Below, in pieces: positions 1 to 54,791 of a stretch of DNA of 64,000 bases (position 1 is the first letter of the stretch; every line of letters begins with the position of its first letter). Origin of the DNA: Fennellomyces sp. T-0311 (Eukaryota > Mucoromycota > Mucoromycetes > Mucorales > Lichtheimiaceae); contig JALLLT010000053.1 in assembly GCA_025266875.1 (NCBI GenBank), forward strand, positions 186,001 to 250,000, written 5' to 3'. Position numbers and translations under genes: made by a program. The notes under the pieces are model-generated. The model saw only the letters and a program-made list of their open reading frames with translations, did not search any database and was not told the origin of the DNA.

Positions 1-3000
1 CTCAATGGCGCCGGTTGCTCATCTTCTACTTCATCTTGTGCTTCACCATTGCTATCATCATGGTGACTACTCAAACTACTGACACGACGACGTCTTGGAG
101 GCATGGTTCTGTTGCGTCGTAACTGTGATACTTGCTCTGGTTGTTGCTGTTCACTGAACCACGGTGCAGAATTGCGTCGTCGCACTGGTACAGCCGGCTC
201 TTCCTTTTTGCTCTTGCGAGGTGGTTCTACTGGAAGTAGTTCAGGCATCGATGTATAGCGTCTGAGTAAAACTGGTGGAGCCCAGGGCCTGCTGATACGT
301 TGCTCTAGAGCGGAATGGCGTCTCGGAATAACAACTTGCACCGCCATGGAGTTCATGTCGTCGTCTTCGTTATCGCTGTAATACATTGAGGATCCAGCCA
401 TACTGGATTGGTCGTACTGTCGGATAATATCATCATCTGCCATAACCTTGGTCACCAAGGTCACTGTACGGCGAACACCATCGTCACTGCTTGTATCTGA
501 GGAAGAAGATCGGCTATTGATACTTCGACGATGCTCCTCCGCTGGCAAAGGATCGTTGTTACTTCTGTATCGCCACGCCATATCCATATGGTTGTTCGTC
601 ATCAACCCTTGCTGACTATGCTGATCATCATCATAGTACCGGTGGTGTGTGTCGAGTGCATCCCTTGAGCGATTCAGGGGTGTCGATTCATCGTCTGTGC
701 TGGAATCAGAATCTTCCAATGCTTCATTTTCGGCCACAGTACAGAACTTGATCGGATTTCCATCGTCCAACTCGATCATGGTCAGACGGCGACTGTCTCG
801 GTGATCGAACCCGTTATGTTGGTCTAGATCCATACGGTTACGCATCATCTCGATGCCTTCCTGCATACTACTCTCGGCGCGATGATACACTTGGGGCAGA
901 AGATGCTTGACGTCTTCATGGACCATCGGTGTCATCAGCTTTTTGTGTAGACCTGGATCCTGAAACTGCTTCGATAAATCGTCTTCCTTGTCAAGCTTTT
1001 CGTCCTTTTGTTCCTTCTTGGGTGGTGGTAGTATTGGTGCTGAACCAGTTGCAGTACCAATAATGAAGGATCCCAGCGTCTCCATGCGACGAGAGTAAAA
1101 GTAGCCGAATACAATCGTAAACACAGGCAAGGGGATCAGAACATAGGACTGTACATGACCTCCTTTCAAGTTCAAAACAATGATCATCAGGACTTGGAAC
1201 AAGACCGTGGACGCCATCATACAAACAAAGACGGTGGGCCACATGCGTCCTCCGGATTCGGTCTTGGTTACAAAGATATACATGAGCATGTATTTGTACA
1301 CCATTGTCGAGACAACAAAGAAGAGAAGCGCAAATGGGAGTACGAGTGGTGCAATTGCCGAATATAGCAACGCGATGGTGAAAAAGAACAATAGCATATT
1401 ATAGCAGAGCGGATAGTCGAACTCAGGTGGTTGAGCCACGTCTCGCAATTCACGGGGACTTGGTCGCGTAATCCATTTACGCAAGGTAATCAGGAGCAGT
1501 GGAACGACCTGTGCCATTTCCATGGTCAAACCAAGAGCCTTGATACACACGTAATTGATCCAGAACGTCGACACATCCGAAATGTTTTTCGCCAGCTGGG
1601 TGATATAATCCGAGATCGAAGTTTGGCTTTGGTCCAGAGAGCCAGACAGAATCAACGATCGGATCTGACCATAGATACCAATGAAAATCGACGCCAGCGT
1701 GAACACCAGGAGGTTGTTGATGATGAAGAACACAAACAGTTTGATGAACACCTTGCGATCAAGCGTGGTATGCGTCTGATATCCTTGCTGCTTGGACAGA
1801 AACCGGAGCAGATGTGGCAGGAGCAGAAAGAACAGCGCCATGACGATGGGTGTAAACCAAGCTTGGATGATACCCATCAAGAAAGAGTTGTTGTTGATGA
1901 ACTCTTCCGAGTTAGGGAACAGCCGGATCAGGTTGACGACGTTGGATGTGGCAGACAAGGCACCGATCGGGATCATCCACACAAAAATAAGGATCCAATA
2001 GATCAACCGTCCAATCCACCTGCGCGTCTTTCGAGCCTTTTCCTCCATCGGCAAATTGGCCCAAATCAGATCCTTGGGTGCGGGTGAGAGTCGGACGCCA
2101 AACTCCCGCTGTTGTTTCTTGTCGACCTTTTGGTTGAACGCTTGGTTGACGGTGTGAGCATGCTCAATTCTGTCAAAGGAGACCCATCCATAGTTGGAGA
2201 TTTTGCTGCTGCTATTCTTTCGCAGCTTTTTGATTTCTCCTTCGAGTTCCTTGACCTGCTCGGTATAATAGTCGATTTCATCCACCTTTTTGCCGCCGCA
2301 GAAAAGGAAGCCGCCCACTCGCATTGTCGGCCGTTTCTTTTTATCTACTGACTTTCCATCTATGGCATGTGTGAGTATGACCCGTCCCGAAATATCCAAG
2401 TCCGTGATCTAAATATTTTGGTTACCATTGAGATAAGTGGAGAGCGCGTCTTCGAGATGTCGCACAGCGGCCTCGTGTTCTTCCGTCAAACTGGTGAGCT
2501 TTGAACTGTGGAGTCCAATTATAGCTTGTTGTACAGTGTAGGGCAGTCTCATTGTATCCATCCACGACTTTAGCTTTTCATCTGTCCGATGGTCCTTGGG
2601 CACGTTGCTGATCAACAGCGAGCGCGCGGATAAGGCATTAGGAGGATGGCGGAAATACCGTTGACGCATTTCAATGTAGTCGCACGAGGCGCGGTAAGCG
2701 AAATACGCTATTAATATGGAAAATATCCATGTAGCAGCAGCGGGTGACCAGTACCAGCGCGTGTCTGCCGCTACGTCATCCTCGCTGGAGGAGATGTAGT
2801 TGATGCCAGAAATAGACAGCAAGTCCAAGCCTGCTGGCGGTGGCCAATCTCTATTGTGGTTATTAAAAAAGAATATGAGCTCAGGTCATAATAACCTCAG
2901 TGTAACACAAGCGGAATCAAAGGAAATGATGCCTTACCCAGTGTGGTAAGTTGCGACTATATTTACAGGGATCAGGGCACAGATGCCAATGATGCTCATG

Positions 3001-3615: not shown

Positions 3616-4986
3616 TTATGAAATGTACTTTTTGGCAGCGGTGCGTTTACTGGCTGCCGCCGACTTGGGTTTGTCGTAGATGTGGCACTAGACAGGAAGC
3701 GGATTAGCGTGGTGCAATATAAGCCAACTAATTGTAGCTTGCCTTGTGCGCGTGACGATACCATAACACACTCGTCTTTCTCTTTGCGTTGCAGATCGGC
3801 ACAAATTGACGACACTGATGACATAACCCCTCGACGACATCGTGGTCGCCGGCGCGCTGCTCCAAAGGCTCCATAAACCGCTTGCCAGAGACAGATGAAA
3901 TGCCGTGAAAGAACTGTTTGTGGTACCAATAAGCGCTGTTTTTCAATTGCAACCATTTCCCAGGTTTGCAGCTGTCGCAGTAGCCTTCTTTAAGCTGGCC
4001 CGTGTACCTCACCCACTTTGGCGTGTACTCGTCGCCTTCGTACCGCAGTTTCTGCCGCCGAGGTACTGCGCTGGGATTCTGTCGTGCAGTGTCCCAATCC
4101 ACATCGCTGATCTCTGGGAATGACGCGTCCACAGTGTCCGCCGGTGGTACTTCTGTGGTGGGGACAGGAAGCCAGTCTTTAAAGTCAACCGACTTGCTCC
4201 GTACATCTTTGGGTGTGACGATACGACGTTTCCGTTGTTGCCTTGGTGACGACACTGGACGCTTCTTGTCATTCCAGGATTGCATGGCCGGCATGTAGAC
4301 ATTTGGGAGTGATCCGCGGTGCTGGTATTGGAAGCTGTCAGGAACAGGTTGCGCAACCGCCAGCGGTCGCTCGGTGTGATCGAACGAATGCCTTCGATAT
4401 GGATCGTAATTGTCAACCACGGCTGTTTTGACGCTGCTGTTACTGCTGTGTGACCCGTCATCAGTGGCAGTGGTTTGGTACATATTGGATGATTGTTGTT
4501 GAAGTAGATGGAGTGTCAGGAGATCTGCCATTTTCTCGCTGATCAGCCTTTGGTTCTTCTCTTGCGCACATACGTATGTAGTAGCACTGTACCTTCATTA
4601 TTGTATTCAGAATTCAGGCAGTTGCTGGATTGGCCGGTGATGGTTGGCTCGGGTGAGCAAGCGCTGGTGGCCGTGGGTGGCCAGTAGTAGTACGAGTCGT
4701 TATTATGGCTGCTGTAGTATGGCTGGGTAGTGGTGATAGGCCGGTCTTGTTGCTGCTTTGGCTCGATCACTGACGGGTCTTCAAACTGTGTGGGTGATTG
4801 AGTCGATGGGAATACGAGTGCATCATCGTACGTCTGCTGAAAATTGAACATGTCACACACACCAGCGCTTGCTGGCCCATCTGCTATGGCAGCGTCGGCG
4901 GCACTGCTGCTGCTAGTACTGAGGGCAGTGGATGACAGTAACGAGAGCAAGTCGGGCTGTTGCGCTAAGGGCGTGAAATGATACAT
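3616..4986 (-). CDS. Rua1-type C-terminal zinc-binding domain protein, putative transcription regulator
   Basis: Three exons, 4986-4593, 4524-3743 and 3687-3616, about 415 residues. The first half is low-complexity Ser/Gln/Thr-rich sequence typical of fungal regulators. The second half contains the Rua1 C-terminal domain: WVRYTGQLKEGYCDSCKPGKW, then WYHKQFFHGIS, GLCHQCRQFVPIC and finally WYRHAHKCH, giving paired Cys plus His-Ala-His-Lys-Cys-His ligands characteristic of that family (named after Ustilago RUA1). The final HAHK|CHIYDKPK junction requires an intron with a GC donor (3688-3742). The protein ends in a basic Lys/Ala tail. Nuclear regulator is inferred from the family; targets are unknown. 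It lies 224 bp downstream of nothing antisense: the channel gene at 3391 follows it on the same strand. Confidence 0.85.
3688..3742 (-). other. GC-AG intron in the Rua1-type gene
   Basis: The donor reads AAG|GCAAGC and the acceptor TAG|TGCCAC on the minus strand. Splicing joins HAHK to CHIYDKPK and restores the conserved last zinc-ligand motif; reading through instead stops after four residues. No GT donor nearby keeps frame. This is an intron call from sequence only. Confidence 0.75.
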
Positions 4987-6367: not shown

Positions 6368-8116
6368 CTATACAAATATCCGGGTATCCAAGCCAGTTGA
6401 AAAGTCCATCACCATCACCCGATGATCCTGGCTTGCACTAAATAGGGCATGAGCACGTCGGCATGATCACGGCTTTCAGGACCACATTACCTGACTATTC
6501 TATTCTTGTCAAACCGTACGTCAAACACCCAGCTCGTGTGCGCATCTTGGAAGTTCAGCAGGCACTTGCCCGTCCTAGCCCAGTCATCGTCAGCTTATCG
6601 CTGCGCGGAAGACGGCAGAAATTCCACTCACCTCATGTCCCACACGCGTATGCTTTGGTCATAGCTAGCGCTGACAATGCGGTCGTTGCTAAAGTGCACC
6701 GTGCGCACCAGGTCTTGATGGCCTGTAGCGAGGTTAGCTGACAATGCTCGCATACAAGCTGATGCATTTCTGTTACCTTCACAGTTTACCAGACATTCGC
6801 CCGTCTACGAGGCAATGGACATTGGGTAAATATTGACACAACAACGTGCTAGAACGGTGCTTACCTCGGGATCCCAAACCTTGATCGTCCTGTCATTTGA
6901 TCCACTGACAATCCGCTTGCCATCGTACTGGACACACGCCAGTCCGCGTCCATGGCCTTCGAACTCCCGGAGGCACTCGCCCGTCCGCACGTCCCACATC
7001 TTGATCATAGCATCGCCAGACGCAGACACGATCTTGTCGCCCTTGAGCTGGACGGCATTCACTGGCCCGCGATGGGCGAATATCGTTCGAATGTGCTCGC
7101 CTGTCGATGTGTTCCATATTCGGATGGATTTATCCTTGGAGCACGAGACGATGAATCGGTCGTCAAATGAGACATCGAGTACGCCTCCTTCGTGGCCCTG
7201 ATAATGCAGATGTTATTCACAACAACGTAAAGATAATAGGGAAAAGAGACGTACAGCAAGTCGATAAAGCGGCTCAAACGTCACCATGCTCCAGACCACA
7301 ATGGTTTTATCGGACGAGCCCGAGACCATGAGGGAGTCGTTGTATTCTAGGGAGAGCACGCTGCCTTCATGTGCACACAAAGTCCGCACGCATTCGTAGG
7401 TCAACATGTCCCAGAACTTGATGGTGCAGTCGCGCCCGCCAGTAACGATGCGCTGGTCGTCGAACTGCAGGCAGTATACGCTGTCGTGGTGGCCGAGAAG
7501 GTAGTGCGTGGAGGCCTGGCCGAGCATCCACCGCCGTTCGAGTTGATAGCGCTGCTTGTACCAGTACTGCCAGTCTTCATCGTAGACACCTCGTGGCAGC
7601 CAGCGCATCTCCGACAGCCGCCAACGCCAAATGTCGTTATTTCGGGACAGAGTGTACCACGTTCGACATACCCCGGACATCGTTACCAGTGTGCTGAGAT
7701 CCACCGACGATGCGATCTGAAGCACAAGCTCGCAGGGCAGACTGGTTAGGAAGTCTAACGCAATGTGTGTGTGTCAGGAAACGGGGGGAATATCTCTCGC
7801 CTACGCTCTCTCCCCTTCATCAACCCAGACTCCCTGGATTTTATCTCGCTTTGGTATACGTCCTACCTATTTTCTTTTCATTGCCGCTGTGCGCCGTGAG
7901 CGCGTTTCTGGACGAGCTGCTGTGATGCATGGTGAGCGACAGAGTCAATCGCCGTCGCGATCCGATCGGGCGCTTCGTGCATTTTCGAGTGGAGGATCGC
8001 ACGGTGACAGATCGACTGGCCAATATTCCGCCTGTATGACATCGCTGGACATGGGCAGCCTCGGTCATTAAAATGTCGTACAGTTGCGCAGGATCTTGAT
8101 TCTCTGAGGTTGTCAT
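6368..8116 (-). CDS. F-box / WD40-repeat protein, SCF ubiquitin ligase substrate receptor
   Basis: Seven coding exons: 8116-7867, 7754-7255, 7197-6865, 6804-6777, 6722-6632, 6574-6491, 6437-6368; 451 residues, all junctions in frame. An 83-residue basic N-terminus precedes a clear F-box (DFLTSLPCELVLQIASSVDL, then GVCRTWYTLS). Seven WD40 repeats follow, each ending in a WD/WN/WS-type dipeptide (KFWD, VVWS, RIWN, KMWD, KVWD, RVWD, MVMD), predicting a complete seven-blade propeller. F-box binds Skp1 and the propeller binds phosphorylated substrates, as in Cdc4/Met30/beta-TrCP-type receptors; I cannot tell which orthologue this is. The 28-nt exon 6777-6804 lies inside blade 5-6. UBC12, which neddylates cullins of SCF ligases, is also in this window. 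Confidence 0.88.
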
Positions 8117-14635: not shown

Positions 14636-15240
14636 TTAGCTCTCTTTTTTTGACTCTGTCATCTGATATCTGTTCTGCAATTTTTGGTATCCGAGCCTTT
14701 GTTGCATCAACCATATAAATAGATATAAATAGAAGTACACTGCAAAAGAGAGGCGAAATACTATATTGCCTGCCATGTATGCAAGCCATGTCCCAGGCTT
14801 CACTGTCACTATTTCGTTTCCCTTTTTCTTTATCCCGGCAATATAGCCAAGAATAAGTATTCCTGCACTCGTCTGGCGGATTGTACGATGGTGACAACTA
14901 ATGCAAACGCCAGTTGACAAGTCAATGCCGATTGGTAGTTGGCACCTCTAGATAAATTATTGGATCCATCATACGGACATGACGGAGGTATCGTAGAGTT
15001 TTGAAGGCTTAAATTCGTAATGCAAGCTCTTCATCTTCGTTTTCTCTTGGTCGCTTTTTCAACCGAGGCTTTCGGAGGTTTCGTAGCTTTCCACAGTGTA
15101 TTGTACTCTTGGTGAATAGGGTTGGTAGATGGCAATCTTTTCCATTGTTCGTCCTTTGTTTTCCCCATCGAGCAAAATTGAGAGTAACACTATCCTAGCC
15201 ATGATTGATGTAGATAATTGATGCAGTCGCAGGGTAAACT
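14636..15240 (-). pseudogene. Decayed third copy of the single-pass membrane protein family
   Basis: The minus strand at 14636-14920 encodes a match to the last exon of the intact genes at 16135 and 17899: VTVKPGTWLAYMAGNIV against VTVKPGSWLARMADNVV, then a hydrophobic helix and LGYQKLQNRYQMTESKK against IGHKTLQSKWHMTVSEK, ending early at a stop. Around 15020-15240 the middle exon is recognisable (CDCINYLHQSWLG, then GKTKDEQWK against DCSDLVSRRWAGF and RKTGRVKTVEE) but carries an in-frame stop and frame shifts. No first exon with the proline-rich region was found. I read it as a relic of tandem duplication. Confidence 0.7.
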
Positions 15241-16134: not shown

Positions 16135-17234
16135 TTATTCTGTATCTTCTGTTCGTACAGGACGCCCAAGTGCAGCTGGAGGGATTTGGCCAATGATTTC
16201 TGCCATGTGTTGGTCGCACCAATCTTTTTCAGATACTGTCATATGCCATTTACTCTGCAACGTTTTGTGCCCGATCTTCCGTCGCCACAACAGCAGCATT
16301 GGCCATGTGAATATAAATAAAAGTGTAGAGTAGAAGAAAGCTCGAACTACAACGTTGTCTGCCATACGTGCGAGCCACGACCCAGGCTTTACCGTCACTT
16401 TGGTCTCCTTTTTCTCGATGGTTATATTTAGTGTGTTAGAATATCCATTGGCTCGTATGCCCGCGGTCAGTGCTTTTTTTGTACATTGATTAACGCTACT
16501 GATGTATATTTAAATAATAGAACTTACTTCGGATCAACAATTCTTCATCCCAGTCAATCACCTTGGTGAGTTGGAGTTCTTTCAACTTGTGCGTGTCTTT
16601 TACATAGTCTTCACACAATTCCTCCACTGTTTTGACTCGACCAGTTTTTCTGTCAGGTAATACATGGAATCCGGCCCACCTACGCGAAACCAGGTCGCTG
16701 CAATCAATCCGATAATTGAATTCTTCGATAGGATGAATAGGGCCTTCCTTGCTGATCTCTTGCTCTTCGGTCAAAATATTGCCATTCGAATCATACGTTC
16801 GACGATATTGTATACGCGGATTTCGCGTTCCTTGAATCAAATCAATTACTATCCAGATCAATCCACGGTATGGTTCTGTGAATACCTTTGAAATGAATCG
16901 CAATTCGGGGCGGCACTGCACTGCGTGCTCGCAGGAACGAGTACAGCTCTTGGCTGAATACATTCACTTGTTGATCGCGCGAGAGAATTCGATCGTCATG
17001 GGAATACGTTTCAAATGGCACATGGTACCGTGGAAGTGTCTCGACTAGACGTGGAGCCGTAGGTGGTTGATCGCTCGGGTCATTGTCAATGTCATTGCCA
17101 AGAAGCAAGGCTTGGTGATCAGGGGTGTCGTCGAGATCCGGTGCATAGTCTTGCATGGCAAGTGGCGTGCTGTCATTGTCGTGTGGCTTTAACTTTCCAC
17201 TGGAAAACTCTGAGTTTGGCGACCAAAAAGACAT
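16135..17234 (-). CDS. Uncharacterised single-pass membrane protein, paralogue 1
   Basis: Three exons: 17234-16886, 16830-16528, 16472-16135; 329 residues. The first ~75 residues are polar and disordered. Then comes a conserved block: LPRYHVPFETYSHDDRILSR, a short helix and FKG at the exon 1 end. The middle exon has FNYRIDCSDLVSRRWAGF, VLPDRKTGRVKTVEELCEDY and LKELQLTKVIDWDEELL. The last exon has VKPGSWLARMADNVVVRAF, one transmembrane helix of about 20 residues rich in Phe/Trp/Leu, then RRKIGHKTLQSKWHM and SEKDW. Both intron positions and phases match those in the gene at 17899. I do not recognise a named family or activity. The C-terminal membrane anchor suggests the domain faces the cytosol. 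Confidence 0.8.
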
Positions 17235-17898
17235 GGAGTCGAAAGAAAAAAGGAAAAGCTTTGATCAAAGGATGTCCTTTTAACATTGGTAGGTCACACA
17301 AGCTCAGCATTATGTCTTGTATATGGAACCGTTCAAAATGCCTATTACTCTTCAGCATACGTATCCACTCTTTTCATCTCCATTGATTTTACATAGTCTT
17401 ATCTTTCCACATATGTATTCTCTTTTGAGGGCAAGAGACAAAAGCCAATTATTTAAGCCAAGATTAGCATGTTTATGGGGCTCAATCGAGAGCCAGCGAA
17501 ACAAATGCCCCAATTAATTTCCATGGAAACGTCAATTGGTAGGCACCGTTACCATGCCTCGGCCTTGCGCTATTGATGGGTCATTCATGAAACAATAGCT
17601 TTTGTCAAAGTTGATGCAGACCAGATCTTTGTGTAACGATCGAAGGACACAACTGTGCATGGAAATTTCGGCACCTGACCCGATTCTTTGGCTTCCTCGA
17701 TGGAGCAGCGGCGAAATGAACAAAAACGATAGTCAAATCGGTCAAAACCAATCACTGTCCGAAAGTGGCGTTGGTGGTAAGAAAGAATTGTGGCTGTATC
17801 ATTTGCGGCATGTGAGAATGGCAAGAATAGAAAATTAAGTTTCTTGGCTTGCCAAGCTCTCGAATCGATCATCCGCGCCACTCTTTTTTTTTGTACGT
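17235..17898. promoter_or_regulatory. Shared spacer between head-to-head paralogues
   Basis: About 660 bp separates the divergent starts at 17234 (minus) and 17899 (plus), so it must hold both promoters. Open frames in it (17585-17977 minus, 17602-17838 plus) overlap the plus gene or lack signatures. No specific site identified. Confidence 0.45.
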
Positions 17899-19102
17899 AT
17901 GAGCAAAGACAACCACGCAAACTACTACTACACATACACCAGTCCTTCAGCCGCCCCTCCCTCAACTCCCAGTGCACCTCCCGCAGACGACATTGCCTCT
18001 AGTTCGTCAGGTGCACCTCCAGCTTACGATGATGCAGTCCAACAAGTGACCGATAGCGCCATTCAGAACAAAGTGGGTGACAGCAGCCCTTATGTTCGAG
18101 ACGACTCCTTTTCCAACTCAATTCCCGCTTACAACCCTGCCAACATACCCGATGCCGACGACACTGCCGATCCCCAGCAACCACTCATCGATGATCCTTT
18201 CCGTGGTCGACCACCGCCGCCAGGCTACTCAGTCTACCGAGCACCTTTTGAGACGTTAAAGGACGGCACGATCCTGTCGCGCGATACTCATTTGAATACG
18301 GATGGTGAAGCTCTGCTGCAGTTTTTGAAGCAAAAAAACACGGCGCCCCTGATGGCCGTACGCTTTCACGGTAGATAAATGTGCGGCAGTGGTGGGTAGT
18401 AGCGTGCTCATATGAAGAATAGGATACCATGAAGAGACGCATTGGCGAACGCGCAGCACACGCGACAATGATGGAAACCTCGTGGAAGAACGTGAACCTG
18501 TGACACGACGCATTGATGATTTCTGCTTTGAGATCGACTGCAGCGAGTATGTCTCGCCCAACTGCGAGGGCATGTATGTCCTTCCAGATCGCAAAACTGG
18601 TCTCACCAAGAGCGTGCGCGAACTCTGCGATGAGTACGTCCACGAGCAGAATCAACTCAAGGAATTGCGGCTGACCAAACTGGTCGAATGGGACTATGCC
18701 CAGTTGACACGAGGTAAAGTTGCTGGCGTGGGGAAGGAACATCTGCTCTGACTCTCCGTTGATCAAGCTTTCACGGCGGCGATCCGCTCGCATGGATACC
18801 ACCACTCGATCGAGATCTCGTTCGAGATGAAAGAGCACAAGATCATTGTCAAGACCGGCTCCAGAGTGTCACGGATGGTCGACAACTGGATGGTGCGTTG
18901 GTTCTTTTTCCTGACGTGTCTCTGGATCATCTCGTGGCCGGTGCTGTGGTTCTGCCGAAAGAAGTTCGGACACAACTCGCTGCAGAGCAAGTGGGGCATG
19001 ATGATATCCGAGCGCGACTGGTACAATCAAAAGGTGCAGGAGGTGCTGGGCCAAGTGCGGCACCAGGGCCAGGCGTTCGGAACAGTGCCATTCATTCTTT
19101 AA
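17899..19102 (+). CDS. Uncharacterised single-pass membrane protein, paralogue 2
   Basis: Exons 17899-18370, 18423-18713, 18768-19102; 365 residues, in frame. The N-terminal ~110 residues are Pro/Ser/Ala/Asp-rich and disordered, with a PPAYDD motif that could bind WW domains. The conserved core begins RGRPPPPGYSVYRAPFETL, ILSRDTHLNTDGEALLQFL, RFHG; it continues CFEIDCSEYVSPNCEGMYVL, PDRKTGLTKSVRELCDEY, LKELRLTKLVEWDYAQL. The end has RSHGYHHSIEISFEMKEHK, VKTGSRVSRMVDNWMVR, a Trp/Phe-rich transmembrane helix, KKFGHNSLQSKWGMM and SERDWYN. Same intron positions as paralogue 1. Function unknown. It converges on ARH1, with 63 bp between the stops. Confidence 0.82.
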
Positions 19103-29769: not shown

Positions 29770-32700
29770 CTAGACTGAAAAGTGCATCTTCAATGGCACT
29801 CGTCCGATCATTGACTTTAGCACGCGTACCCACTCTTCACTTTCCTGTACTTCGTCACAGACGCAATCCAGGTAAGTGTCAGGGAATGTGACACGGAAAA
29901 ATCCTCGTCCAGTCTGCTCCACAATGGTATTTGACTTGAACACACGGTTATCCGGTACATCAACCAGTGTTACAATAACTTGATCGGATGCAGCAACCAG
30001 GCGAAGGGCATCGGCAATGTCGTGCTGACCAAGTGGTTCGAAGGAAGAGGCAGCAGCCTCGGATGAATAGGCAAGCAATTGGCTACCGATAAGTCGACAG
30101 TAATAGCGCTCCCAGAACTAAAATTATATCAGTAAAGCTGATATTACTGAGGATATGAATAAATAGGGTACCTGAGAGTCCTCTTTTCGCATTGAAAGAT
30201 AGCCACTGTGCCAGCATGTTTGATGCCATTGACGAATCCGGAGTGACAAATCGCATTCCCGTAGACTTTTTGGTATTGGCTATAGATAAGGGTGGTCAAT
30301 TAAAGCCAATGTTTAAGAAGAAACGAAACTCACCAGGGATGGATCAGAGACAGGCAAATACAACATCTCAACACTTAAACTGCCAACAACCTTGAGCATA
30401 TCTTCTTCACCGCGTAATTGCCGCTGCCGTTCCTTGGATGATCGGGCAAACCATGAGTTGAAGCAATCGAAACTGGCTGCATACGTCTTTTGATTGCACG
30501 CTTGGATCATATGTCCCAAAGCAAAACGTGATTGTCCGATAGATCCATCCTCGGTATGTACGTAGCCATTGAGCGTTTGGCGTTGCTTGTGTGCTGGCGT
30601 GAGCCATTTGGTCAGACCTGTCTTCGGTCGAACATGGACATCTGGTCGCACATGCAGGGACACAGTGATAATCATGTCGGGCTGTGCATCCACAATACAC
30701 TCGTAGTCAAACGCCACCTTTTGTCCAAGTCCTTCGTATCGCGACATGTATTCATATTGGCCATCGCTCACCACGCAGCGCACGAACGTTGGGAGCTTGG
30801 GAAGTGGCAGTAAAAGATCATCTGCGTTGCTGACCCGGACATACAGTTTGCCAAAAGCGGATGTCGATTGACCTGGATTAGTATTGACAGCAGGCAACTC
30901 AAGTTTGACGCTCTGCGGTCGATCTATGAAGAATTGGTCATACTCTTTAGGCATTTGCTGCTCTTGTGGTAGTCGGTGGGCAATGTATCGTGAAGTTGAT
31001 CCAACAGATACGCTGCCATATGCTTCTGGATTTTGTGTCGACAGCCGCTGATGCTGAACTTGCTGTTCGTGATGGACTCGTTCGTGTTGATACTGCTGTT
31101 CTTGCTGATAGTCTTGCTCGCGTTGATACTCCTGGTCTTGGTGATAGCTTTGCTCGCGTTGGTACTCTTGGTGTTGCGGATGGTTCCGCTCCTGTTGTGC
31201 TGACGAGTTTTCGCCGACCACTGGCAGCTCATTTTGTGTTGTCTCCTTCGCGTTTTGACCGTTAAGCTCGTAGTGATCAATATCTTTGAGATCAAGATTG
31301 TCAATCGACGATCTGTTGAGACGGGGAGGCGAGGTAGGTGGTGGTGGCCAAGTATCAACACTTTCTGCGCCCAGTGATATCCGCTGCTTAGGGCTGAACG
31401 AAGCGGATGGTTCACGCGATTCGACAGATGTTTCATCAACAGAGCGTGCATCATCTGGTGTTTCGGAGACGGACGGTTTATCGTCAGATCGAGAAGCATC
31501 CTCCTCTTCTTTTTGATACGTCGATGGACCTACTGTGTCGTCGTCATCGCTGTCGTCAGTTTCCTGCTGTTGCAATAGCTCTTCATCGTTACGCATGATT
31601 TCCATCGCCAGCATAGACTTTCTGAGCGGTGATCTGTCTCCACTGCTGTTTCCATCGGCAGAGCGGCGTGGTTTGGGTTTCAGCGAGACACGAACACCTC
31701 CTTCTTCAGACCATTCTTCATAGCTGTCGAAAAACTCTTGTTCACTGTCCGCTTCACTGTGCAAACTCATCCGCAACTCTTTGCTTTCACGGCCAAGGGC
31801 ATTGTCCCACGAGTTCACGCCAGCAGACCAATGCGAGCGCTGACTGCCGCTCCATCGACGTGCATCTTCACCTTCGGCTTGTACTGATAGCTCGGATAGC
31901 CGCTTCTGGTCAATTATCTCGTCAATTTCCGTATGGTCCTTTCCGGATGGCGGGGTATCATTGTCTGCTTTCGGTTCAACCGTGTCTTTCTCGCGTGGGG
32001 CTGGTATCGGTTCAGTGGGAGAAGTAGGATCTTCCAACTTGGTAGGTGTTTCTGGTCTGGAATCAACGACAGGTGGTGACTCTGGTTCTACTTTGGCCGG
32101 TGGGGCCAAAGAGTCTTCTGACGGAGTAGCCGGTGATGGAGGTGACGCAGTTTCTATATTGGAGGGTGGTAATGAAGGAGAAACAGGAGGCACAGGGGAT
32201 GCAGCACGAGACGACGATGCTGAAGACGGCACGGGAGATGAGCCACGCGATGGTGGCTCGCCTTGCCGAAAGACACTGGAGGAGACGTAGGATTTGCTCT
32301 TCAGTGAGTTGATGACCTTGGAATTTCTGCGAGATTTGTTATCGTCGTCCACACCGGGCACCGAGAGCTTGTTTCCAGTCGGCAAGCTTTTTTGGCGTCG
32401 TTGTGTCTCCTGTTGCGATGACGACGGGGCCGTGGGCTGCTCGAACTTTTTGAACAGCGGATTGTTCTTGACTGCCGAACGTTTGGCCAACAATGACAAA
32501 TCCTGCTGACGCTTGTTCTGCAGACGCAAGTCTTCTTGGCTGTTTTGCCGCTTTCCACTGTCGCCAGACTGATCGGTGGCTATCGCACGCAACTGCTTGA
32601 ATCGTTCAGCTGAAGAATAACTCTGCAACGGTTTCTTCGTCACCGGGATTTTGCTGCGTTCATGCTTCTTTGCAGGTTGGGGTGAGGTGCCGCGCTGGTC

Positions 32701-33258
32701 GACATCTTTTGGTGCATACCCCAAGTCGTTGGTGATGGTCAAGGAGGCGCCGCGTTCGGTCAGTTGAGAGACAATTTGACGGTGGCCGAGAAAGGATGCC
32801 AAGTGCAGCGTGGTGTTGTTACACGATCCCCAGGATCGAGTGTTCAAGTCCTGCTCGTTTGCTTGCTGGAAAAAAGGAAAAAGTCAGCCGTGTTCCTGTA
32901 GGCGTATGCACGTAATATATGTTACTTTGATCAGATAGGTTAGTAATCGTGTCCGCTTCTGTTGAGCCACCGACAGTGGCAAAGCTGTTTCATCGTCGGT
33001 TTCGAGATGATCTAAAAGCATGTACGGAATGGCGGGCAAGTCGCCCAGTTCAGGGCCTAGCACCTCTAACCGCTCGAGTTGAGCGATCAGGTGTGCGTAC
33101 TCGGTGTCAATGCGAGCGCCATCTTTGTCAAGCGGGCTCCAAAGCAGGTCAGGGTGCGACTGGTGAAGTTGCTGGACGCGCTCAAGATCGACATTGACGA
33201 CAGCCCTGGTCCATTCCACCAGCATGAAAGAAGGATCGGTCAGGGTCGCGCCGTCCAT
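29770..33258 (-). CDS. Ankyrin - anillin-homology - PH domain protein, likely septation or polarity scaffold
   Basis: Four exons: 33258-32926, 32865-30334, 30279-30172, 30117-29770; 1106 residues, all in frame. The N-terminus has an ankyrin repeat region (NNTTLHLASFLGHRQIVSQL, ERGASLTITNDLGYAPKDV). Residues roughly 150-650 are disordered, Ser/Pro/Glu-rich, with a Gln/Tyr/Glu/His repeat tract (QREQSYHQDQEYQREQDYQQ). The C-terminal third carries an anillin-homology-type module (GKLYVRVSNADDLLLPLPKL ... FNSWFARSSKERQRQ ... GSLSVEMLYLPVSDPSL). The PH domain follows: LRIRQWHQTCWHSGYLSMRK, FWERYYCRLIGSQLLAYSSE, ending at the stop. Bud4, Mid2 and anillin proteins with this C-terminal pairing organise septins and the division site; that role is inferred here. 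Confidence 0.87.
30999..31190 (-). repeat. Gln/Glu/His/Tyr-rich coding repeat in the anillin-like protein
   Basis: Degenerate 5-6-residue units related to YQREQ/YQQEQ/YQHER, from repeated codons in the disordered linker before the anillin module. Boundaries are approximate. Confidence 0.6.
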
Positions 33259-35911: not shown

Positions 35912-38317
35912 ATGGTAATACCCAACTAACTTTATTATGCAAGTACCATAATAACGCATTTCAATAGGATTCGTCCGATCACAACCCCCATAACTATGCA
36001 TTACGTCTCACACAGCAAGGTAAACCCTAATTGACAACGCGATCGACAGCAACTGACACCAAAAAAAAGACGCCATTCTTCAACCTAACATTTACAAAGA
36101 GGCATTCAAGCCTTTCATTGCTAATGGTGGCGCACCCATGGATGCCGTTTCGGCATTGTCAGAATCGTACGTTGGTTATCCGTCCATGATCAAGACAACG
36201 GCAAACATTGCAACAACAATGGGGATCGATGTTGAGGCGATCCTTCGAAAAACTGTCAAAAAGCAAATAATGAACAAGTTCAATCCAAAGGCGATTGACG
36301 AAGCGTTAATGAACACACCGGTATGTAACTTGATCCGAGAATTCGAAACAGCGTATTGAACGAGTGAGTAGACGCCCACGTCCTTGGATTGGCTGGACGG
36401 TCTGGTGCACGATACCGAGTGGCGTCACATGATATACGAGCTTCTTGACAAGTATCCGCGATGCGAGTTTCTGAACTTTGCCATTATGGTGAGTGATTGT
36501 TGGGCGCGGTGATGGGCGCGGTGATTGCTGATTGGATCCGAAGAGAATGGCGGAAGGCGGGTACCAGCATGAAGTTGCGCAACTGCGCACGGGATCCAGC
36601 TATGTTGAGGTGTATAACTACATCCTCAACGACGCGTTCACAAAGTTGATGGCAAAGGACGATATTGAATTTGAAGAGAACCTCCCGGCGTTCCTGGTAA
36701 CTAGGATGTGTGGGGTATATTGTTTTTATCGTTAATCATTGTGTATAGCGCGTGTGCTCAGATCAAGAACACAGTTACTTGTATGCGCAAGTCCTCATTC
36801 ACCGGTTATACCAAGAGTTCAACGATCTTTCATTTCTCCGCCTCGCTAAGGAGCTGGAGAAAACGGCCATTGCCCGTGGACAGTACGTGATTATTAGGCA
36901 TACGTCAGGGGAAAGTCCTGACTTGTTTTCTAGACACGAACTTGTATATATTATCAAGTCATGCGCCGTCGGTATGCCTCAAGATCTGGCAAATGCACTA
37001 AAAGCAATCCGATCGTCTGGCCAGCCAACTCCTGGCGACATAATGACCGTATGGATCCATCTCTCTTTTCAGTGCCGGTAGACTAACAGTGTTCCCAGGT
37101 ATACAATATCTACACCGCAACCGAAGCCCCGAGCGTATACTTCATCCGGGATTATGAGCTCATCGGTAACTTTCTATGACCAAAATACCCCAAGGACTGC
37201 CTGCTTATGTGTTTCGTAGAACTGATGCTCAAGGCCTTGTATGTCCCCGATGCCGTTCCGAATATGAAGCCTGATCTCGTCGATAAACTAATCTGCCTAC
37301 TTGCATTTGCCACGGCGTATAACGAATCAAAGCCAAGAGAGGTATGTCTTATACCCGCCTGTCTACTGTTGCTCTTAACAAGTTATGATCTCGATAGGAT
37401 CAAGAAGAGACTCTGCGGCGAGTTTGCAAGACACTGCGACGCCTTTACCAGGCACTGCAAGCACAATCCGGCGCATACTTCTCTGGCGCAATGACCGAAA
37501 TTCTGGAAAGCATGAGGTAGGTCGAACGTTGAATAGCAAAGAAGGGATTGTAGCTCAAGTCCATTGCGTTAGTATACCCGCGGCATCACTAGGCATCTTA
37601 CTTTGGATCGAGTACATTTCCACGCGAACTCCATATTACGAGACATATTACCGCTCGTCTGAAATTCCTTTACCACACTTGCTCCTGGATGAAATTGCAT
37701 CAGTACATCCACTACAGCAGCCAATGGTATTGGAAGTTATTAAGCGCTGCTTCCTCCATCCCTACCAAAACTTTGCGCCTGAGATATTGGTACGTAGCCC
37801 ATGTGGTGTAAATTGCCGATACCATGCTGACGGACATCTTTAGGCTGCCCTACAAAAAAGATGGATCGAGCGCTTAGTAAACCTTGTTGAACTACACTAT
37901 ACGCTCCCGGTACTAAAGTTTATCAAAAGTGTGGTTCGCGAAATTGATTATAGTTTAACGGTTCATTTTGTAACCAAAGTATGTTCTGGCTTGTCCGTCT
38001 TGATGTCAACCACTGATCATTTAGAGTAGGTTCTGGAACTTGCTGAGCCACCATATAGTACCGAATTTGTAGAACATATTGTGGACACGCTGGTGCCAAT
38101 CGCAGACACCATCGTCATCGTCAAGGGCTTCGAGCCAATATTGCATGAATTCATTGGTAAGCTTGATATTTATTGCTCTCCAGCACAATCTGACTGTAAC
38201 TACTTAGCCAAAGTACATGAACCCAATGCTGTTGATCAGCCATTGAGCGAGGAACTACAAGCAAAATTAGCTGTATTGGCAGCCAAGCAAAAGCCACACA
38301 GAAAATCTTTGTACTAG
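35912..38317 (+). CDS. NELFCD: NELF-C/D (TH1) homologue, negative elongation factor subunit
   Basis: Fourteen coding exons: 35912-35914, 35968-36019, 36070-36320, 36372-36488, 36544-36696, 36749-36882, 36934-37048, 37099-37165, 37220-37341, 37398-37516, 37573-37789, 37844-37978, 38030-38156, 38208-38317; 573 residues, all in frame, close to the ~590 of human NELFCD. Collinear TH1 landmarks: DWLDGLVHDTEWRHMIYELL, FLNFAIMRMAEGGYQHEV, a CSDQEHSYLYAQVL block, then LLLDEIASVHPLQQPMVLEV, KRWIERLVNLVELHYTLPVL and VTKVLELAEPPYSTEFVEHI. All-helical, nuclear. In animals NELF-C/D with NELF-A, -B and -E holds RNA polymerase II in promoter-proximal pause. Pausing in this fungus is inference; other subunits are not in the window. 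Confidence 0.9.
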
Positions 38318-39791: not shown

Positions 39792-41851
39792 ATGATAGCT
39801 ACTGCACACAGACGAATGAACCAAGGTTTACTTGGTTTATTGGTCTGCTCTCTTGTGGTCGTTATGATTTACGTATCTGCAAACGTATCGACAACAACAT
39901 TTTACACACGACGACACCCAGTCTCGGCAGAACCATCTGCAGATTACAATGATGGCCGTCAACAGCAACAGCTTCCTGACGGTGATCCTTACCATAGTCA
40001 AAGCTATTACACAGACAAAGCATTCGTTACCACGGTCTTCGAGTCGAGTTTGGTAATTCAAACGTAAAAGGAGGAGCTTGATCTTGCATTTTCTTATTTT
40101 CAAGCAGATAGATGCAGCCATTGTATCGGTCTATTCGCTACAAGCTGTATCCACCCGGGCCAACATCGTGGTTGTCTTGGCAAATAATGAAACAAACAAA
40201 ATAGCTGCATCTAATCGTTTTAATGACATGAACATTCATATATTGCATGTACGTTTGTGCAGAAAATGGCCAAATTGGTTATTGACTAATAGTATGGCAA
40301 TATTTAAGACCTCTACTGGTGATGACCCCATAACGCAAGCTCTGTACCATTATCGGAAGGTTGTGTACTTTTCAAGCGAAATCTTGTTTAAAAAGGTAAA
40401 GTTTTTGTCACGTTACACCCAAGATGATGCTCGACTATTTCAATTGCATTTATATTAAATTATTACTGTAAAATAGAACGTAGATCATTACTTTGGCTAT
40501 CCAGTCAATACAATTCTGGAAGAAAACGATGAAGTTGGTCTGCGTGTATACGAACGTTCAAAAGAACCACCACCTTTACTGGCGTCGGTGAATTTTCCAT
40601 TATCTAACCAGGTATGGCTTCTACTTTTAGAACAATGCAGAAAAAAAAACTAAAAACCTTTGGCGGAATTGCAGGAAGTTTTATGGTTTAACGGACCGAT
40701 GAAACCATGGGATTTCCATCAATACCATGACACCGACTGGCGCAAACTCTATGACCCCGCCTCCTTCTACCAGTGGCGCAGTCTCCACGACAAAATAGCA
40801 GTATCACCAGGTAATGTCTACTAAACCATAGTTGAAATCGTTCGTTTGCTGAGCCCACTTGTTTTCCACAAGACAGTACTTGGGCTAACCAAGATCGACG
40901 CAAGACGATATGTGCAGTGCAAAGCCCGGGCCATCCAGAGGATCTTGTCCGAGACCGATTTTCCGTCCTACTCAGCACCTATAAGCCCGAACGCATTCAG
41001 CACCTGACATTGCTTATCCGTCACCTGCTTCAATCCTCTTTGGTACATGAGATCTTTATCACTTGGCATAATCCAAGTCTAGAAGCGCCACAGCTCCCGG
41101 CTGAATGGGACCGCGTCAAAGTGCTCCTACAATCGTTCAATTCGCTCAACAATCGATTCAATCCGGTGGATGCAATCCAGACTGAGGCTGTATATATCCT
41201 CGACGATGACGTGTTTGTCGATATCAGTGACCTCGAGTTTACGTTTCAGGTGTGGCAATCGAACCACAAAGACAGCATTGTGGGTCACTTTCCACGCATC
41301 CATAAGTACAACCCGGAGGCCAACGAAGCCGAATATAAGGTCTCCAACAAGGACACATACTCGATGGTGCTGACAAAGAGTATGTTTGTTCATACTGATT
41401 ATTTGTACGCGTACACATGGTGAGCAACTGCATGCTGTGTCGTCCATTACGTAATTCTTACCTGCTTCTTCTTTTTTCGTCCAACAGCCTTATGGACACA
41501 TCTATACACCGTATCATAGACGAATGGACCAATTGCGAAGACATTGCATTCAATATGATGGTATCCGGCCTAAGTGGTGCACCAGCCGTAGCAGTGAGAC
41601 CAGAAAAGCCACTTATCGACTTTGGCCTGGACCAGGGCATCAGTACCAACTTGCAACATATGGGGGGACGAGGCGAGTGCGTGAGCCATTTCATTACCAA
41701 CTATTGGAGCGCGAAAGACCCGCTGTACGTATCACATACATCAGTGGTACCGTACATTCGACCGCAGATTCGACGTGGCAAGTGGGACCATATGGACGCA
41801 ATCCTTCAACGCTACCACTTTGATATTACGGACACAGACTCTCCCTCATAA
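39792..41851 (+). CDS. Type II membrane glycosyltransferase: GT8-like domain fused to exostosin-type GT64 domain
   Basis: Exons 39792-40052, 40108-40395, 40477-40611, 40675-40810, 40873-41419, 41488-41851; 576 residues. A signal anchor near residues 12-32 (LLGLLVCSLVVVMIYVSANV) predicts a Golgi type II protein. The first domain resembles GT8 (glycogenin-like): TDKAFVTTVFESSL, ITQALYHYRKVVYFSSEILF, NVDHYFGYPVNTIL, FNGPMKPWDFHQYHD. The usual DxD in VVYLDAD is replaced by SSE. The second is a full EXT C-terminal/EXTL2-type GT64 domain: FSVLLSTYKPERIQHL, YILDDDVFVDI (metal-binding DDD), VGHFPRIHKY, NCEDIAFNMMVS, and GISTNLQHMGGRGECV. GT64 enzymes transfer GlcNAc or GalNAc; substrate here is unknown. 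Confidence 0.85.
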
Positions 41852-53042: not shown

Positions 53043-54791
53043 ATGCTGAAAAAGACCAGATCGGCCAGCACAACCTCCACACGAGCCACCATTCGGACAA
53101 CCACGTCTTCCGAGTTGTCGTTCAATAGTAGTTGCAGCGGTAGTCGACTTGGGGGAGCAGGATCATCCGTCAGCGACGCAAGCACTTCGATGAGTACTTA
53201 CAGCATGGAAGACCAAATATCATCTTTCCGCATATCTCTCAGTTCGTCTGCATGTCAACCCGCTCTACACGACGATGTCGACGTTATTGATGAATTATAC
53301 GAGTTTTTTGGAAACGAGCTGGATTCTCGTAGCATGGGTTCGTACTATTGCACCTTACACAAATATACGAACCATCTCGCTAAAAAAGAAACCCGTCATA
53401 TATATAGATCTGGTGGTAGAAGCTGATCTTCAAAATCGCGAACGCGTCCTACGAGAATTATTCGATACAGAGGGACGCTTCATCGCAAAGATTCAGGCAG
53501 CGCTTGAATACTACAAAAAGCCCATGATGAGTAGCTTTCGTTCATCATCAAATACGTCGGGCCCGTCATCATCTTCGTTGCCTCGCAATTTTCTCTCGTC
53601 CAACAAATCCGCAGGGATGGTACGAGGAAACGATGTCGAGCTGGTATTTAGCAATTTAGAAGATATTCTCAGTATCAGCCGTCGGTTCTTCAATGGCCTC
53701 AAAGAACGGTAAGGCACGAGCGCGGATGGTTTGACAAGTAAAATTAACGAATGGCTCCTAGATTCCGTATATGGGGACCCACACAGCTGCTATCCGATAT
53801 TTTTCGTACACTGGTAAGGCACACTCCTGCCTTTGCGATCCTCCATCCCATAGTTCTAACTTTATGTTCGTAGGTGCTTGACGCATCATCCTACTACACA
53901 TATTATGAAAACTACGGCATTGCCATGAGTGTGTTGGAGCGACTTGCTCGTACACCAGCCACCAAGAAACATGTAGAGGTAAAATGGATAATACTGGTTT
54001 AATGGGGACACAAACATGCTCACACGGATGCGGCTTGTTTTTTAGGCGATGATCGACTCGACTGGTTCTGGTCAAATATCGTTGTTTGCATTACTTTCCC
54101 TGCCTTTGCAATCCATCACTCGATACGCACAGCTCATGAATGAACTTGTACGATACACCGACCCACACCACCCGGATGCTCAGCAGCTAAGTCAGTGCGC
54201 AAAACGAATGGCCCGTCTTGAAGCCAACATGCGTCACCTGTAAGTTATTGTTTTTGGTGATGGTCGAGCCACATATACTAACATTTTTCTAATTAAAGGC
54301 TACAAAACTGCCAAAATGTCAGTCGACTCGTCGACATGATCTGTTTAATCCGAAATTGCCCAGTTCTACTCGACGAACCTCGACAGTTCATCATGCGTGG
54401 CCAGCTTACTAGTGTCAGTACCGGAAGCTACAATCACCGTGACGACCGCCGAATGTACTTTTTGCTTAGCGACTGTCTCATCTTTGCTCGACCACGAGAC
54501 GATATAACCCCGTCTGCTCTCTATTTTAAGGGGAAAATCGATCTTCGTGACGCTGTCATCAAGGAGTTACCAAAAAAAAAACTTAACCATCCACACGCAT
54601 TCGAAATTTCCATTAATTCAAGTGACCCGAATTACAAATACGCGGACGATATCGATGCACTACTTGCCGCGGCTGGCGGTTCTACTATCCAAATGTTCTA
54701 TTTCAAGGCTGATTCTAAAGAGGCACTCAACATGTGGATCGGGGAAATCCAGCAAGTAATCGACCAGCTTAATCCACAGCGAAGGCGATAA
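53043..54791 (+). CDS. Compact Rho guanine-nucleotide exchange factor (DH-PH)
   Basis: Six exons: 53043-53337, 53408-53708, 53762-53813, 53874-53978, 54046-54239, 54299-54791; 479 residues. The first ~75 residues are Ser/Thr-rich and disordered. The DH (Dbl-homology) domain has RVLRELFDTEGRFIAKIQAA (CR1), FSNLEDILSISRRFF, SIFALL-like LFALLSLPLQSITRYAQLMN (CR3) and DAQQLSQCAKRMARLE. The PH domain has FIMRGQLTSVSTGSY, MYFLLSDCLIFARPR, HAFEISINSSD and MFYFKADSKEALNMWIGEIQ. It activates a Rho-family GTPase in polarity or wall signalling by analogy. No other domain is fused, which makes it small for a fungal RhoGEF. Confidence 0.92.

What the first reader, a model, noticed from the sequence alone, without database searches (positions are those of the whole stretch)
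35912..38317. NELF-C/D (TH1) homologue in a fungus
A full-length, 14-exon gene is collinear with animal NELF-C/D. The NELF pausing complex is generally described as metazoan-centred and missing from budding yeast, plants and nematodes. An intact, intron-rich copy here implies that early fungi kept at least part of NELF and possibly promoter-proximal pausing, or use this subunit for something else.
Basis: partly seen in the sequence, partly recalled or inferred. Interest (0 to 1): 0.82.

Follow-up and report, generated by a model that had tools for sequence, protein, structure and literature searches.

The report
Fungal copy of NELF-C/D pausing subunit
A mould of the order Mucorales carries an intact gene for NELF-C/D, a part of the animal machinery that halts RNA polymerase just after it starts; the gene is real, but it is already annotated and the presence of such genes in fungi is already in print.

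Summary
Window 35912-38317 (+) holds a 14-exon gene with 13 GT-AG introns of 50-56 nt, coding 573 residues. The protein is identical to the NCBI record 'TH1 protein [Fennellomyces sp. T-0311]', a Mucorales fungus. Pfam TH1 matches at 287 bits, E 3.6e-85; solved human NELF-C/D chains match at E 5.5e-63; all 11 fold matches at E <= 0.001 are NELF-C/D chains. The same genome carries full-length NELF-B and Spt5. NELF-A, a NELF-E tail, HEXIM and 7SK were not found; these negatives are weak.

NELFB and NELFC orthologues in Fungi, without A and E, are stated in PMC10591015 (2023). PMC11482795 (2024) places this core in the eukaryotic ancestor, lost in yeasts, C. elegans and land plants. So this is a known kind with an existing database record. 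Open is what a NELF-B/C pair does in a fungus; slowing early Pol II is my best guess, untested here.

The parts
35912..35914 (+). NELF-C/D exon 1 (coding part: ATG only)
   Evidence: protein identical to NCBI record P0001
35968..36019 (+). NELF-C/D exon 2
36070..36320 (+). NELF-C/D exon 3 (inside the first TH1 match, 36057-36488)
36372..36488 (+). NELF-C/D exon 4 (inside the first TH1 match)
36544..36696 (+). NELF-C/D exon 5
36749..36882 (+). NELF-C/D exon 6
36934..37048 (+). NELF-C/D exon 7
37099..37165 (+). NELF-C/D exon 8
37220..37341 (+). NELF-C/D exon 9
37398..37516 (+). NELF-C/D exon 10
37573..37789 (+). NELF-C/D exon 11 (inside the second TH1 match, 37559-38083)
37844..37978 (+). NELF-C/D exon 12 (inside the second TH1 match)
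38030..38156 (+). NELF-C/D exon 13 (first part inside the second TH1 match)
38208..38317 (+). NELF-C/D exon 14 with stop codon

Best explanation
The gene is the single-copy orthologue of NELF-C/D in the Mucorales fungus Fennellomyces sp. T-0311. Shown here: the spliced protein is full length, has the TH1 domain and the NELF-C fold, and the same genome encodes full-length NELF-B and Spt5. Inferred: it was inherited from the eukaryotic ancestor rather than acquired; NELF-C/D pairs with NELF-B through the same surfaces as in animals, giving a two-subunit core; that core docks on Pol II carrying DSIF just after initiation and slows it without the long, focused metazoan pause, because the animal Pol II-binding tail of NELF-A, NELF-E, HEXIM and 7SK are missing or unrecognisable. 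I put about 0.97 on the identity, about 0.85 on the B/C pairing and about 0.5 on the action on early Pol II.
For: Identity. NELF-B in the same genome: COBRA1 131.6 bits, E 4.4e-38; solved NELF-B chains, best E 9.3e-37; NCBI record 'cofactor of BRCA1-domain-containing protein [Fennellomyces sp. T-0311]'; fold match to NELF-B in 7 of 7 PDB hits at E <= 0.001, best TM 0.70 by query and 0.72 by target. DSIF: Spt5-NGN match at 49.5 bits. By my count of names, 14 genera appear in both homologue lists (18 named genera for NELF-C/D, 23 for NELF-B). In human NELF, NELF-C crosslinks mainly to the N-terminal part of NELF-B, and that part of the fungal NELF-B (residues 5-326) is what sequence alone aligns to human. 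[quoted passage not shown]
Against: No expression, binding or nascent-transcription data. NELF-A was not found, and in animals it carries a Pol II-binding part. The basic residues that PMC4940160 links to nucleic-acid binding are not specially kept: at 9 human positions the mean K/R share in 22 fungi is 0.21, against 0.34 at the other 38 human K/R positions, and 3234 of 20000 random sets of 9 are as low. So RNA binding as in human is unsupported. PMC10591015 argues for a cytoplasmic, pausing-independent role of NELFB that could be evolutionarily more conserved. Jimgerdemannia and Basidiobolus appear in the NELF-C/D list but not in the NELF-B list, though both searches were limited by shared words.
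Confidence: 0.6

Rival explanations
1. The fungal NELF-B/C pair does not act on promoter-proximal Pol II at all. It serves an older role, for example a cytoplasmic signalling or scaffold role as claimed for mammalian NELFB, and was later recruited to pausing in animals.
For: PMC10591015 reports a cytoplasmic pro-survival role of NELFB and argues from the distribution of orthologues that B and C have functions independent of A and E. No NELF-A or NELF-E was detected here.
Against: NELF-C/D, the direct partner of NELF-B in the nuclear complex, is kept alongside it in 14 genera named in both lists. Species with only the B/C core have raised pausing indexes (PMC11482795).
Confidence: 0.25
2. A complete NELF exists: the fungus also has a NELF-A, and perhaps a NELF-E equivalent, too diverged or too split by introns for these searches.
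For: NELF-A and NELF-C homologues were both reported in Dictyostelium and Chlorella (PMC4940160). The exon-wise search is insensitive: NELF-B scored only 29.3 bits on its best stretch, although the spliced protein scores 131.6.
Against: No match to NELF-A_N at E <= 1 or to human NELF-A residues 1-308 at E <= 10. NELF-E RRM hits (11 at E <= 1) end before the NELF-E tail, and the top three look like TIA-1/Nam8-type multi-RRM proteins (the type is my reading, from no call). PMC10591015 reports no NELFA or NELFE orthologues in such organisms, Fungi included.
Confidence: 0.25
3. The gene is contamination or a recent transfer from an animal.
For: None found.
Against: 13 introns of only 50-56 nt, the NCBI record under the fungus, 33-79% identity to 21 other fungal proteins against 25.6% to human, and the same pattern of fungal relatives for NELF-B.
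Confidence: 0.01

Closest known systems
NELF-C/D (TH1; human NELFCD), solved in paused Pol II-DSIF-NELF complexes such as 6gml, 8uha and in NELF-AC 5l3x
   Same: Collinear over nearly its whole length (query 15-538 on human chain 51-580), TH1 profile, NELF-C fold as best structural match.
   Different: 25.6% identity over 516 aligned positions; the human protein has about 36 more residues at the N-terminus (from the offsets); the 367-379 hairpin region is shorter, with K374 in a gap in 21 of 22 fungi; nucleic-acid patch residues not specially conserved.
TH1 / NELF-C/D proteins of other Mucoromycota and Basidiobolus
   Same: Same family, 511-603 residues long, 33-79% identity; three from Apophysomyces are already named 'Negative elongation factor C/D'.
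   Different: I saw nothing that separates the window gene from them.
Core NELF (B + C/D) of unicellular eukaryotes as described in PMC11482795
   Same: Both core subunits and Spt5 present, ancillary subunits not detected.
   Different: No PRO-seq from a fungus with core NELF is described in the passages I read; the fungi with data named there are S. pombe and S. cerevisiae, which lack NELF.

Membership tests
NELF-C/D (TH1, PF04858) | Significant match to the TH1 profile over most of its length | tested here: met
   287.3 bits, E 3.6e-85, profile 42-547 of 579
NELF-C/D (TH1, PF04858) | NELF-C fold, closer than to other helical-repeat families | tested here: met
   AlphaFold2 model, mean pLDDT 80.4, pTM 0.59; 11 of 11 PDB hits at E <= 0.001 are NELF-C/D chains; TM by query 0.47-0.53 in ten of them and 0.16 for the 146-residue 8jj6_C; by target up to 0.68
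NELF-C/D (TH1, PF04858) | Binds NELF-A | not testable with these tools
   No NELF-A found to test; the NELF-C contact residues are marked in a figure, not listed in the text I read
NELF complex | NELF-B partner encoded in the same genome | tested here: met
   G000:C128:330544-332607, 7 exons in my model, COBRA1 E 4.4e-38, NELF-B fold
NELF complex | NELF-A subunit | tested here: inconclusive
   No match with PF23553 at E <= 1 or with human NELF-A 1-308 at E <= 10, but the search is stretch by stretch and has no positive control
NELF complex | NELF-E subunit (RRM plus its own tail) | tested here: inconclusive
   11 RRM matches at E <= 1, none reaching beyond query residue 85 of 122; I looked at the frames of the top three only and read them as multi-RRM proteins of another type
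NELF complex | Nucleic-acid-binding basic patches of NELF-C (R291, K315, K371, K372, K374, K384, K388, R419, R506) | tested here: inconclusive
   K/R kept in 0 of 22 fungi at four of nine positions and in 4-13 of 22 at the other five; not different from random human K/R positions, 3234 of 20000 sets as low
Promoter-proximal pausing | Pol II accumulation downstream of start sites that depends on NELF | not testable with these tools
   Needs PRO-seq or similar in the fungus
Promoter-proximal pausing | HEXIM and 7SK RNA controlling P-TEFb | tested here: inconclusive
   No match to PF15313 at E <= 0.1 or to RF00100 at E <= 0.001; none of the 14 control genomes rang

The most novel reading that the evidence does not exclude
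Mucorales run a minimal two-subunit NELF (B + C/D with DSIF) that slows Pol II near promoters without NELF-A, NELF-E, HEXIM or 7SK. That would make them a genetically tractable living example of the pausing machinery before animals, and NELF would have been lost within the fungi after the early branches.
Probability: 0.35. Interest if true: 0.6.

Novelty: already known. Interest (0 to 1): 0.25.

Why it matters
If the fungal B/C pair does slow Pol II, a fungus with both core subunits allows a direct test of what the NELF core does without the animal-specific subunits, a step that PMC11482795 argues from comparing species and from depletion in mouse cells (passages read). As a gene finding it adds little: the protein is already in NCBI under the name TH1, and the presence of NELF-B and NELF-C in fungi is in print.

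Tried and rejected
NELF-A: PF23553 against the genome, human NELF-A residues 1-308 against the genome, and a protein-database search with residues 1-190. The last gave 361 matches at E <= 1, of which only the best 120 are listed; the listed rows that bear a name are vertebrates, so it says nothing about fungi.

NELF-E: RRM plus tail found RRM stretches only; of the 11, I looked at the frames of three. HEXIM, 7SK and INTS13 (PF10221) gave no match. In some searches none of the 14 control genomes rang, and one search had no control, so these negatives are weak. INTS2 (PF14750) was asked four times and never answered.

Loss of nucleic-acid-binding patches as a positive finding: rejected, because the control shows the drop is within chance. 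Absence from Dikarya cannot be read or 25: candidates must share short exact words with the query, one search scored only the 7996 candidates sharing most words, and neither list holds an animal protein although human chains match. Using mutants MT183/MT194 of PMC10591015 to test the B-C interface was dropped, because the residue numbering could not be matched with certainty. PMC12716044 (passages read) reports NELF missing in Paramecium; it does not bear on fungi with NELF.

Rows dropped: alignment A2 used 27 of the 32 NELF-B hits (P0045, P0049, P0052, P0053 and P0054 left out as short or partial); alignment A1 used all 22. For NELF-B, one search gave 143 stop-free splice chains; I took one of 576 aa by splice-site score, intron length and fit to human NELF-B. 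It was fourth by the script's score. It differs from NCBI record P0023 (569 aa) only by 7 residues at the fifth intron's acceptor (the many 'insert' entries are alignment gaps, because the script read the gapped row).

Full report
What is there. The window lies at G000:C132:186001-250000 of a 45.6 Mb assembly in 182 contigs. Between 35912 and 38317 on the + strand I assembled 14 exons separated by 13 GT...AG introns of 50-56 nt. They give a 1722-nt coding sequence and a 573-residue protein without internal stops. The first coding exon holds only the ATG. The protein is identical to P0001, named in NCBI 'TH1 protein [Fennellomyces sp. T-0311]', a member of Mucorales, Lichtheimiaceae. The NELF-B record from the same organism sits on a contig of 1,514,096 bases, exactly the length of G000 contig C128, so the genome is that of Fennellomyces sp. 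T-0311. The gene is therefore already annotated.

What it is. Pfam gives one family, TH1, at 287.3 bits. Phmmer against the PDB finds 8 distinct sequences, all named NELF-C/D, the best at E 5.5e-63. An AlphaFold2 model from 22 fungal sequences (mean pLDDT 80.4, pTM 0.59) matches NELF-C/D chains in 11 of 11 Foldseek hits at E <= 0.001. The next hits, beta-catenin armadillo repeats, start at E 3.4e-3. TM-scores by query length are only 0.47-0.53 in ten of the eleven (0.16 for the short chain 8jj6_C), so the arrangement of the two halves is not well modelled. Identity to human is 25.6% over 516 aligned positions, and 33-79% to the 21 other fungal proteins. These come from Mucorales genera (order recalled, not looked up, except Fennellomyces), from Jimgerdemannia (Endogonales) and from Basidiobolus (Basidiobolomycota). 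The pattern fits vertical descent; no tree with animals or protists was made.

The rest of the machinery. The COBRA1 profile found NELF-B on contig C128. In my model the gene spans C128:330544-332607 with 7 exons. The protein scores 131.6 bits on COBRA1 and matches only NELF-B in the PDB (6 of 6 distinct sequences). The model of the NCBI version (pLDDT 87.9, pTM 0.80) matches NELF-B in 7 of 7 hits at E <= 0.001. Sequence alone aligns residues 5-326 with human NELF-B; the fold comparison extends over 558-582 columns in the five best hits. Spt5 is present. NELF-A_N, human NELF-A residues 1-308, HEXIM, 7SK and INTS13 gave no match. The NELF-E query found 11 RRM matches at E <= 1, none covering the NELF-E tail. 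These negatives are weak: the genome is searched in six frames without regard to introns, no control rang or none was run, and even NELF-B reached only 29.3 bits on its best stretch.

How it probably works. In human NELF, NELF-C crosslinks mainly to the N-terminal part of NELF-B (PMC4940160, section read). That part is the one recognisable by sequence in the fungal NELF-B, so I infer that the pair forms. [quoted passage not shown] The best reading is a mild, DSIF-dependent slowing of early Pol II. The rival is a pausing-independent role, argued for mammalian NELFB in PMC10591015 (passages read). I also tested nine NELF-C residues that PMC4940160 places in positively charged patches proposed to bind nucleic acid. 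Arg or Lys is kept in 0 of 22 fungi at four of them and in 4-13 of 22 at the other five. A control with random sets of human K/R positions shows this is not unusual (3234 of 20000 as low), so it neither supports nor excludes RNA binding.

What is known. [quoted passage not shown] PMC11482795 places the core in the last eukaryotic ancestor and lists losses in S. cerevisiae, S. pombe, C. elegans and land plants. Searches of the held library for NELF with Mucoromycota, NELF with early-diverging fungi, 'negative elongation factor' with Mucor and NELF with Rhizopus found one review in three of them and nothing. That review (one passage read) only expands the abbreviation NELF in its section on gliotoxin. 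So I found no study of NELF in these fungi, within that library. The finding is true but ordinary as a gene identification; its value is as a test system.

Noticed in passing
window 40836-41848 (+): A glycosyltransferase family 64 (PF09258; exostosin-like is my reading) gene in at least two exons, 129.7 and 43.5 bits, about 2.5 kb downstream of the NELF-C/D gene.
   Followed up: no
G000:C128:330544-332607 (in L005): NELF-B gene of the same genome; the NCBI model P0023 and mine differ by 7 residues at the acceptor of the fifth intron.
   Followed up: yes
window 16135-17264 (-) and 17839-19102 (+), perhaps also 14636-14947 (-): Neighbouring genes on opposite strands whose translated pieces look alike by eye (VPFETYSHDDRILSRD / APFETLKDGTILSRD; KPGSWLARMADN / KTGSRVSRMVDN), apparently paralogues; the one piece scanned, 18416-18748, has no Pfam match.
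   Followed up: partly
window 30313-32880 (-): An 855-residue open frame without any Pfam match at E <= 0.001; by eye its middle is of low complexity.
   Followed up: no
window 2412-2885 (-), 3731-4594 (-), 7216-7773 (-), 54297-54788 (+): PHM7_cyt domain, Rua1_C transcription regulator, F-box/WD40 protein, and a PH domain (next to what I read as a Rho-GEF), which look like ordinary fungal genes.
   Followed up: no
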